Source of the DNA: Pycnopodia helianthoides
Taxonomy: Eukaryota > Echinodermata > Asteroidea > Forcipulatida > Asteriidae
Length of the DNA stretch: 64,000 nucleotides
Assembly: GCA_032158295.1 (NCBI GenBank)
Contig: CM063246.1
Span: forward strand, 20,660,135 to 20,724,134
Direction: 5' to 3'
How positions within the stretch are numbered: the stretch's first letter is position 1; each line of letters begins with the position of its first letter. Below the pieces are notes generated by a model, which saw only the letters and a program-made list of their open reading frames with translations, made no database searches and was not told where the DNA came from. Made by a program: the position numbers and the translations under genes. Positions 8,401 to 11,834 of this stretch are shown here, piece after piece.

Positions 8401-11400
8401 TCATCTTTTCAGAACGAGACACTGATTGATGACTTCAAGGAGATGGTTGTTTTCTAGGGCAGCTGCCACTCGTTCCTTATCTGCAAGCTGTTTATTTACT
8501 GAAAGAAAAAAACAAAAAATAATACAAGATTTTTAGTAAACAACTCAAGACACACCTGTGTAATTACAAAACCAGACAATTATGTGCCTCTTTCTAGCGT
8601 TTGCAAACAGCAAACAAGGTATGTGAGTAAGGAGTATACCGACTGTGGTATACAAAAGAAAACTGGCCATCCAATTGACTTTGAATCTGCAGGCCAAATA
8701 CAGAGTTTTCTAAGCAAAAATCGCTGCGAGACAGAGTCTGCCAATGTTTTAAATTGAGGTACAACAAGAGCATTTATGAGAAAAGTAATCTAAAACAATG
8801 GCCTTTGAAATCCATTTTGTGAACAAGCAAAAGAAGAAATGAGATATTTATAATTGTATGGAGTTATTCATACCTGCATCCTCAGAGGCGTGGCTCCCAG
8901 GATAAATCTTTACATCGACCTGCCAAGAAAGAACATTTTTTTAAGTTCTTTTTTCCAGCTCATTATCTATGCATGTTTTAGAGCAGGGCCCAATTTCATA
9001 GAGCTGCTTAAGCACAAAAAGTAGCTAAGCACAACAACATGATGCTTACCAGAGTAAGGTTACCAGCCAAACTACAACGTCATGCGTACAATTTGTGACT
9101 GGTATCCTGCTCATTTCTGCTTAGCAGACACTTTTTATGCAGTATTTTCTGCTTTAAGCAGCTCTATGAAATTGGACCCTTGTCAGAAGTCTTTTAATGC
9201 TTTCTCATTTTTCACTCAAACTGAAGGTTCTGGTTAAAGAACTTAATCATGATGCCATCATCTTGGTCATGCTCCCTGTGCCAATAGCAGAGTCGAATCG
9301 TTACTGATTCTTTTAAGTTGATAAAGTGACCAGACCACCCAGCCTCAAATGACACAAGATGGCTTCTCCATGGTTATCAGCAGGGCTCAAAATTAACACT
9401 GGACCACAGGCCTGAGGCCAGTGATTTTAATGTCAGGGAAGTAAACTCACGACTGGACAAGCCTGGTGGTCTTGTGTTTTTCAATTGAATAATAACAGGC
9501 TACCTTTGCAAAAAAATTGTGACTATGAGTCTGATAAAATATCTTTCAATTCTTTTCAGTATTCAAGTACACAAATTACACGTACAAATGAGATAGATCT
9601 TCTCTGAGTACTTGTTCAACTCATTTTGATTCTGAGGTCGATTTCACAAAACTCTTCCTAACTTAGGACTAGTCCTAGGCAATGCTAAGAGATAGGATTA
9701 GTCCTAAGTACTGGTCCTAACTTAGGACTAGTCCTATCTCTTAGCATTGCCTAGGACTAGTCCTAAGTTAGGAAGAGTTTTGTGAAATAAACCCCTCGTC
9801 TCGTAAAATAAATTCTTGTCCACTCTACAAGCCCTGCTGTCTTGTAGATATTCCCCAAAAATTTGAGCTCCAGTTATCGTGCAAAGAATCTCACCTTAAA
9901 TCGAGGCGGCAGAGATCTGAGAAGTTTCACACGTATTGAGAGGCCGATGAGTGTAGCCATGCTGCAGTGCGGTATGGTCGGAGTAAACAACACCTTCACA
10001 CTGTTGGCTCTATTATCCACCTGAGAAAAAAAACAATGACAGTTCGAGATGTGAGACACTAAAGAGAATGTAACTCTTGTTTACAAGGCAGACACAGGAC
10101 TTGGAGATCCTGCAGTCACAAAGTGATCACAGCTCACTGAAAGAAAGCTTACAATCTTAAAATTTAAGGGATAGACCTCATGGAAAACTGACTGAGTAGA
10201 ACTTTCAAAATAATTTTGGGTTCAACCAAAAAGAAATTACTAGAGTGGGACTTGTCAATTTGTCTTTGTTCAACCCAAAACTATTTTTTTAAAATTCACC
10301 CACTCAGTTTCCCTTGTGGTTTATTACTGAATATTTGAAATCACATTTGATTCCCTTAAGGTGACCCCTCTGCTGCCGTTTCCCAGGTTGTATCTTAAAC
10401 TTGTGTGTGATCCCTGGCTACACGGCAGTTACAGGTTAAATGGCTTTTTACTGGCACCCCCGAACAAAGGCATTGACTAAATAGGGCGACCGCCAACATA
10501 GGGCTAGATAAATCAGTCGGTAGAGCGCCGGCACTTTAATCCGGAGGTCGCAGGTTCAAGTCCCACTCTAGTAAATTTGTTTTTGTTCAACCCGAAATTT
10601 TATGAAGTTGGCAGTGTACAGCTTTGATCAACTTTTGATATGAAGAGATGAGGTACATATTCAAACTTCATCAGCTGTTGTTCCGTTTCGATAAAGCTTG
10701 TTTTACTTTGGTCAGTATCTTGCCTGCCAAGAATCACCTGGATGCTCAAAGGCCAATCTTCTTGTAAATATGGTGCCATGGTCTATTAGTTACTATACAA
10801 TGGAAGATTATTGCAACTAAAATTGGGGGAAGTCCAATAACAATGATAACAAAATAAACAACCTTTTCACTTATATTTACCTCAACTTGTGAATGAGTGA
10901 CAACATTTAAATCTTCTAAGCTGAGGGGGTGTTCAGGGTCGTTGATATGTCTGATTAGATGTAGAAAATAACGTTAAGGATTGGAATGGAAAACATCATA
11001 CGTAACACTCCATTAACAGTTAATACAGTAGTTAGTACATTTTATAATTAGTAAATAAAATAATGTCTCAACCTTAAAAAAAACATCCACAGACGTTCAA
11101 AATTGCCTTTGCTTGACATAATTATTACTAATAATTACATTAATTAGCTGATTAATGTTATATTTATCTCCAACATCCTATACAAATTCAATATTAATTT
11201 AATAATATAACATTAACAGGGCTGTGGGTTGGCAAATTAGAAAACTGGCCAATTACTAATTTGATAACCTGTTGGAAGTGGATATTTTGTTATTAATAAT
11301 ATAGCCCCAAAGTTGTAATTAAAGCTTCATGAACAACTGTTGTCATGTTGTCTTTACTCTAGAACTTGAATGATGATGTCATTTGAATTTTGAAACATTG

Positions 11401-11834
11401 CCAAGGCCAAGCATGCCATACATATTTAGGCCGAGGGCACGACAGGAGTGATGCCTGGAAACTTGCTAAAGAATACAGGATCCAATTGTTGTTGTTTTTT
11501 CAAATCTGTAACTTCATAAACCAGTCTTAATATAACTTTTGATCACTAGATTATAACATTCGTATTTAGTTAGTAAAACTTATTTCGCATCCACACGACA
11601 ACATTCATTGATTGATGACGACGAAGTTAAATTAAAAAAACAAATATATAAATTCATCATTGTTTTGCAAACCAAGCTGCAATCATTTACAATTTAAAGG
11701 ATATCAAAAATCTCCCTTGCATCAATCTCGTCCACGACATCATCGTCTTCCTCCTCTGCGGTGGTTTCTCTGTCCAATAACCGAGAATGAATCGTTGGAT
11801 TCACGTTCTCAACTTCTCTATCGGTAGGCGCCAT
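8401..11834 (-). CDS. CIAO2B: CIAO2B / MIP18 (FAM96B), cytosolic iron-sulfur assembly component 2B
   Basis: Five exons right to left: 11834-11705, 10960-10881, 10020-9895, 8919-8874, 8498-8401. They total 480 nt, encoding 159 residues plus TGA; the human protein is 163. The start gives MAPTDREVENVNP; an upstream in-frame ATG at 11966 is more likely 5' UTR because family similarity begins only after 11834. Visible family motifs are DAREIF-DLIRHINDPEHPL, FTPTIPHCSMATLIGLSI, VKLLRSLPPRFK and VNKQLADKERVAAALEN. Cys89 in the PHCSMA motif is the conserved reactive cysteine of the DUF59/MIP18 fold. With CIAO1 and MMS19 the family delivers Fe-S clusters to cytosolic and nuclear proteins. Intron 1 is a U12-type AT-AC intron; using its AC end restores the family sequence exactly, while the nearby AG breaks the frame. 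The gene is divergent from TTC5. Confidence 0.97.
8986..9180. mobile_element. GGGCCC foldback element
   Basis: Same family as 7477-7668, with the same orientation of the interior motifs; lies in CIAO2B intron 3, 67 bp upstream of exon 4 in transcript terms. Confidence 0.9.
9381..9838. mobile_element. CAGGGCTC-type element carrying a nested palindrome
   Basis: Starts CAGGGCTCAAAATTAACACT and ends ACAAGCCCTGCTG, an inverse copy of the 54145-54493 type. A nearly perfect palindrome (9640-9793) is inserted inside it. Confidence 0.65.
9640..9793. repeat. Long near-perfect palindrome (foldback element)
   Basis: Outer arms TTTCACAAAACTCTTCCTAA and TTAGGAAGAGTTTTGTGAAA, with repeated TTAGGACTAGTCCTA motifs that are palindromes themselves. 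The whole 150 bp can fold into one hairpin. Confidence 0.9.
10400..10620 (+). mobile_element. tRNA-Lys-like repeat (SINE-like), copy 1
   Basis: The part 10501-10571 resembles a tRNA: CAGTCGGTAGAGCGCC (D arm, A box), CTTTAAT anticodon-loop-like, and GGTTCAAGTCCC (B box), closest to tRNA-Lys. The acceptor and T stems pair poorly, so it is not a working tRNA. Flanks GGTTAAATGGCTTTTTACTGG and TTTGTTCAACCC match 45050-45215. An inverted fragment of the 3' part lies at about 10205-10290. Confidence 0.75.
10961..11704 (-). other. CIAO2B: U12-type AT-AC intron, CIAO2B intron 1
   Basis: On the minus strand the donor reads ATATCCTTTA (11704-11695), an exact match to the U12 AT-class 5' site. The branch element TCCTTAAC lies at 10980-10973, and the intron ends TCTAC with AC at 10962-10961, about 12 nt past the branch adenosine. 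Joining G at 11705 to ATCTAATCAGA at 10960 yields DAREIFDLIRHINDPEHPL, the family sequence. No GT donor near exon 1 works without a stop codon. Confidence 0.95.

What the first reader, a model, noticed from the sequence alone, without database searches (positions are those of the whole stretch)
10961..11704. U12-dependent AT-AC intron in CIAO2B
The donor ATATCCTTTA is an exact U12 AT-class 5' site, the branch element TCCTTAAC sits 12 nt from the 3' end, and the intron ends in AC. Only this splicing restores the conserved IFDLIRHINDPEHP; a standard gene finder would stop at TAA after IFDIL. AT-AC introns are a tiny class, so the case is useful for minor-spliceosome studies in echinoderms.
Basis: partly seen in the sequence, partly recalled or inferred. 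Interest (0 to 1): 0.75.

Follow-up and report, generated by a model that had tools for sequence, protein, structure and literature searches.

The report
Conserved U12-type AT-AC intron in CIAO2B
This gene for an iron-sulfur assembly protein, probably from a starfish, carries a rare kind of intron cut out by the minor splicing machinery, but the human gene is already known to have a minor-class intron apparently at the same spot, so it is a sound but ordinary example.

Summary
On the minus strand, 11704-10961 (744 nt) reads ATATCCTTTA...TCCTTAAC-12 nt-AC. Removing it, plus three GT-AG introns, gives an open 159-aa CIAO2B/galla-2 protein, 95% identical to an Asterias amurensis protein. Of 40 x 120 donor-acceptor positions tested, three restore IDAREIFDLIRHINDPEHP; they are one junction slid by two bases, and only one register is AT-AC with the consensus donor. 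The U12 class call rests on sequence: exact donor with C at +5, exact branch site, short spacing. The genome holds a U11 RNA.

It is not surprising. PMC4010461 (passages) used human FAM96B (=CIAO2B, recalled) intron 1 as a U12-type test intron and showed that it accumulates when U6atac is blocked. A primer printed there implies that the human intron starts ATATCC after the same base of the same Asp codon (my deduction). So this is, most likely, an inherited and already known minor intron in one more species. The claim that a standard gene finder would stop at the TAA found no support. No RNA-seq was available; genome searches for U12, U4atac, U6atac and CENATAC did not complete.

The parts
11705..11834 (-). 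CIAO2B coding exon 1, ATG to first base of the Asp codon (phase 1 boundary)
10961..11704 (-). U12-type AT-AC intron, 744 nt, G+C 0.298
11695..11704 (-). U12 AT-class 5' splice site ATATCCTTTA
   Evidence: can pair with the U11 5' end, but about 7% of random stretches pair as well
10973..10980 (-). U12 branch-site motif TCCTTAAC, 12 nt before the intron end
10961..10962 (-). 3' splice site AC
10881..10960 (-). CIAO2B coding exon 2 (starts ATCTAATCAGACATATC, giving D-LIRHINDPEHP)
9895..10020 (-). CIAO2B coding exon 3, flanked by GT-AG introns
8874..8919 (-). CIAO2B coding exon 4, flanked by GT-AG introns
8401..8498 (-). CIAO2B coding exon 5 with stop codon

Best explanation
Window 11704-10961 (-) is the first coding intron of the CIAO2B (galla-2/FAM96B/MIP18) gene of an echinoderm, probably an Asterias-like starfish. 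It is a phase-1, AT-AC, U12-type intron removed by the minor spliceosome: U11 recognises ATATCCTTT and U12 recognises TCCTTAAC (these steps, U6atac takeover and AT-AC catalysis are inferred from the known mechanism, not shown here). It most likely descends from a minor intron at the same place in the common ancestor of starfish and humans (inferred). Unspliced RNA would stop after codon 46, so full-length protein requires this splicing.
For: Exact motifs at the protein-demanded boundary; AT-AC register is the only one of the three equivalent junctions with a consensus donor; +5 is C, whereas U2-type AT-AC introns in sodium channel genes have G at +5 (PMC2831892, passages); 12-nt spacing within the 11-13 nt branch-to-3'ss optimum (PMC3584512, passages); spliced product is a complete 159-aa PF01883 protein, PDB galla-2 E 2e-67 over residues 6-158, 95% identical to an Asterias amurensis protein; one U11 snRNA gene in the same genome, 100.9 bits against a cut-off of 39, with 0 of 14 control genomes ringing; human FAM96B intron 1 U12-type, accumulating on U6atac block, primer placing ATATCC after the same Asp base (PMC4010461, passages; placement is my deduction).
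Against: No transcript evidence was available. U12, U4atac, U6atac and CENATAC were neither found nor excluded: those genome searches did not complete. The computed U11-donor pairing (seven pairs, -6.5 kcal/mol) is weak support: 333 of 5000 random 16-base stretches of the same strand and 50 of 730 stretches along the intron pair as well or better. A U2-like site pair overlaps the intron (GTAAAT at 11690, AG at 10951), which could give an unproductive product. Pyrimidines make up 0.75 of the last 20 nt, although U12-type introns are described as lacking a distinct polypyrimidine tract. No DNA from another echinoderm was compared.
Confidence: 0.96

Rival explanations
1. The intron is a U2-type AT-AC intron spliced by the major spliceosome.
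For: AT-AC ends alone do not fix the class: human SCN4A intron 21 has AT-AC ends but needs the major spliceosome (PMC2831892, passages).
Against: The U2-type AT-AC introns of sodium channel genes have G at +5; here +5 is C and the full ATATCCTTT and TCCTTAAC motifs are present. The human orthologous intron needs U6atac.
Confidence: 0.02
2. The gene is spliced here by a GT-AG intron and the AT-AC motifs are coincidence.
For: A weak U2-like donor (GTAAAT, 11690) and an AG acceptor (10951) lie near the two ends.
Against: That pair leaves the in-frame TAA in the message (sequence). Of the GT/GC-AG pairs tested (donors from the start codon on, acceptors within 200 nt before HINDPEHP), one keeps the frame into HINDPEHP, 11781/10951, and it deletes 28 residues including REIFDLI. 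Joint chance of the motifs at the right place is about 2e-9.
Confidence: 0.01
3. The intron is U12-type and, in addition, is kept in part of the transcripts so that the minor spliceosome sets the CIAO2B protein level (a retained-intron switch). This adds to the best explanation rather than excluding it.
For: Retention gives a stop after 46 codons; AT-AN minor introns show relatively high basal retention and depend on CENATAC in human cells (PMC8280824, abstract and passages).
Against: Nothing specific to this gene or species; retention was not measurable; predicted folding of the intron region is unremarkable (z -0.56).
Confidence: 0.1

Closest known systems
Human FAM96B (CIAO2B) intron 1, U12-type (PMC4010461)
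   Same: Same gene (name equivalence recalled); intron after the first base of the Asp codon of IFD and starting ATATCC (both deduced from the printed unspliced-RNA primer); minor-class.
   Different: The deduced human sequence continues GCCGCT after ATATCC, here TTTA; human splicing was tested, this one was not; the human 3' end was not seen here.
U12-type AT-AC introns in general
   Same: Donor, branch motif, spacing and AC end fit.
   Different: No clear difference seen; the last 20 nt are 0.75 pyrimidine.
U2-type AT-AC introns of sodium channel genes (e.g. human SCN4A intron 21)
   Same: AT-AC ends.
   Different: These have G at +5 (PMC2831892, passages); here +5 is C.

Membership tests
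U12-type (minor) intron, AT-AC subtype | 5' splice site (A/G)TATCCTTT (consensus recalled) | tested here: met
   ATATCCTTTA at 11704 (-), exact; only copy in the window
U12-type (minor) intron, AT-AC subtype | branch motif TCCTTAAC (recalled) close to the 3' end (optimum 11-13 nt, PMC3584512 passages) | tested here: met
   TCCTTAAC at 10980 (-), 12 nt between motif and intron end
U12-type (minor) intron, AT-AC subtype | terminal AT and AC, junction restores the protein | tested here: met
   three equivalent registers, one of them AT-AC with consensus donor
U12-type (minor) intron, AT-AC subtype | no distinct polypyrimidine tract | tested here: inconclusive
   pyrimidines 0.75 of last 20 nt, part of it the branch motif itself
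U12-type (minor) intron, AT-AC subtype | minor spliceosome present in the organism | tested here: inconclusive
   U11 found; searches for U12, U4atac, U6atac and CENATAC did not complete
U12-type (minor) intron, AT-AC subtype | splicing depends on U6atac/U12 | not testable with these tools
   needs RNA; shown for the human orthologous intron with U6atac (PMC4010461, passages)
CIAO2B / galla-2 (MIP18 family) | PF01883 domain and better, longer match to galla-2 than to CIAO2A | tested here: met
   PF01883 46.3 bits, cut-off 23.5; galla-2 229.2 bits over 6-158 against FAM96A 127.3 bits over 36-156
U2-type AT-AC intron | G at +5 | tested here: not met
   +5 is C

The most novel reading that the evidence does not exclude
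The deeply conserved AT-AC intron makes cytosolic iron-sulfur protein assembly depend on the minor spliceosome in echinoderms as in humans: slow removal of this one intron would set the CIAO2B level and so the supply of iron-sulfur polymerases and helicases.
Probability: 0.1. Interest if true: 0.4.

Novelty: new member of a known kind. Interest (0 to 1): 0.15.

Why it matters
It is a clean example of an AT-AC minor intron apparently kept at the same codon position in starfish and human, useful as a positive control for echinoderm gene annotation and intron classification. [quoted passage not shown]

Tried and rejected
Rejected: GT-AG splicing at this site and U2-type AT-AC splicing (see rivals). 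A second U12-like combination in the window scan, minus strand 52603 (GTATCCTTCTGT) to 48457 (ending TCCTTAATAATCTGAATTAC, 4147 nt), has mixed GT-AC ends; I did not look for protein support there and take it as chance. RNA folding of the intron region gave nothing (z -0.56, 5 of 20 shuffles fold at least as well). The U11-donor duplex turned out to be weak evidence once I ran a control: 333 of 5000 random 16-base stretches do as well or better.

Papers: searches for U12-type intron + echinoderm (3 papers), FAM96B / minor intron / U12 (165 papers holding two of three, 20 listed), CIAO2B + minor intron (0 papers), AT-AC intron + sea urchin (6 papers, none on this subject by title, none opened), FAM96B with five minor-splicing terms (381 papers holding two of six, 12 listed, none of those 12 with FAM96B) and U11 snRNA + U6atac + sea star (0 papers). 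Term look-ups in opened papers found nothing on this gene in PMC2831892, and no echinoderm terms in PMC2831892 (sea urchin, purpuratus), PMC7367187 and PMC2846911. I read passages only, no paper as a whole; supplementary tables, where intron lists would be, could not be read.

Not answered: genome searches for U12 (RF00007), U6atac (RF00619), U4atac (RF00618), CENATAC (PF14968) and a CIAO2A query. So the full minor spliceosome in this genome, and whether CIAO2A shares the intron, stay open. No echinoderm DNA other than the window's own genome was searched, so conservation inside echinoderms rests on proteins only.

Full report
Observation. On the minus strand, the CIAO2B coding sequence starts at 11834. 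Exon 1 (11834-11705, 130 nt) ends after the first base of an Asp codon. The next 744 bases (11704-10961) start ATATCCTTTAAA and end TCCTTAACGTTATTTTCTAC; exon 2 starts ATCTAATCAGACATATC. With exon 2 (10960-10881), exon 3 (10020-9895), exon 4 (8919-8874) and exon 5 (8498-8401), joined across three further GT-AG introns, the reading frame is open for 159 codons and then stops. The product matches PF01883 (46.3 bits, cut-off 23.5) and the PDB sequences of galla-2 (E 2e-67, residues 6-158) far better than FAM96A/CIAO2A (E 5e-36). Its best database relative is an Asterias amurensis protein, 95% identical at 100% query coverage. In the window's own genome the protein gave 4 matches at E <= 0.001 (8 candidates scored), all within this gene, so no second copy was seen at that threshold.

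Junction. I tested 40 donor positions around the end of exon 1 against 120 acceptor positions around the start of exon 2 for restoring IDAREIFDLIRHINDPEHP. Three pairs do so, and they are one junction slid over the shared bases AT (11704/10961, 11703/10960, 11702/10959); only the first has AT-AC ends and the consensus donor ATATCCTTT. Among GT-AG and GC-AG pairs that keep the frame from the ATG into HINDPEHP (acceptors within 200 nt before it), one was found, 11781/10951, with a weak donor, and it deletes 28 residues including REIFDLI. Without splicing, translation ends at TAA after ...EIFDIL, 46 codons. A U2-like donor GTAAAT at 11690 and an AG at 10951 could be joined only with that TAA kept.

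Chance. The 9-base donor and the 8-base branch motif each occur once in the window on both strands together. In 200 Markov-1 sequences of equal length they occur 0.74 and 1.285 times per strand, and a suitably spaced set 0.04 times. Alone they prove little; what counts is that both stand where the protein demands the junction, about 9e-6 times 2e-4 by base composition.

Class. U12-type introns are defined by donor and branch site rather than by end bases, and the branch-to-3'ss optimum is 11-13 nt (PMC3584512, passages); here 12 nt separate motif and intron end. U2-type AT-AC introns in sodium channel genes have G at +5 (PMC2831892, passages); here it is C. The genome contains one U11 snRNA match (C6:2780103-2780235, minus; 100.9 bits, cut-off 39; 0 of 14 control genomes ring; 40 of 45340 first-look candidates were scored, confirmed). 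Its first bases AAAAAGGGUU can form seven pairs with intron bases +3 to +9 (-6.5 kcal/mol), but this is weak evidence: 333 of 5000 random 16-base stretches of the same strand and 50 of 730 stretches along the intron do as well or better. Searches for U12, U4atac, U6atac and the AT-AN factor CENATAC (role: PMC8280824, abstract and passages) did not complete. Against a textbook picture, the last 20 nt of the intron are 0.75 pyrimidine, while U12-type introns are said to lack a distinct polypyrimidine tract.

Already known. PMC4010461 (passages) calls human FAM96B intron 1 U12-dependent, finds no increased retention under a U4 antisense oligonucleotide, and accumulation of the intron with less spliced product under a U6atac oligonucleotide. 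FAM96B is the older name of CIAO2B (recalled). The reverse complement of the printed unspliced-RNA reverse primer is ATCTTCGATATCCGCCGCT: codons for I-F, the first base of Asp, then ATATCC. By that reading the human intron lies at the same base of the same codon and is also of the AT class at its 5' end; this is my deduction from the primer, and the human 3' end was not seen. PMC10639083 (passages) reports deuterostome minor intron densities as homogeneous, tunicates excepted, and comparable to vertebrates, naming Asterias rubens. An inherited minor intron here is what one would expect.

Gene-finder claim. The 120 homologues listed (best 120 of 6072) all carry the spliced motif, 119 by a pattern and the last, P0112, by eye; the 11 echinoderm proteins among the 14 fetched all show FDLIR or FDLVR. 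The list is ranked by similarity to a spliced query, so truncated models would not appear in it; the claim that gene finders fail here is therefore unsupported, not disproved in general.

Verdict. The observation and the class call stand; the case is an ordinary, well-formed orthologue of a known minor intron, without transcript evidence from this species. Interest is low.

Noticed in passing
window 12021 (+) and 13625-14032 (+): A TPR gene on the opposite strand, with Tetratricopeptide repeat protein 5 the best natural match in the PDB (E 2.6e-24; three engineered TPR proteins score higher), appears to start 186 nt from the CIAO2B ATG, head to head; the link of the ATG at 12021 to the TPR exon was judged by eye.
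   Followed up: partly
L005:1501-1633 (-): The U11 RNA of this genome reads AAAAAGGGUU at its 5' end, with U where the Rfam consensus has c at position 9; this would let it pair also with intron base +3, but positions 8 and 9 lie in the basal stem of the Rfam structure and the pairing is not unusual against random stretches.
   Followed up: partly
window 42566-43852: Tandem array of a 30-base unit, about 43 copies, 96% matches; long open frames on both strands.
   Followed up: no
window 22034-22106 (+) and 45121-45193 (+): ARAGORN and Rfam each report one tRNA, at different places.
   Followed up: no
window 9636-9793: Inverted repeat inside CIAO2B intron 3: two 74-nt arms, 96% complementary, 10 nt apart, rich in TAGGACTAGTCCTA; it looks like a miniature inverted-repeat element.
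   Followed up: partly
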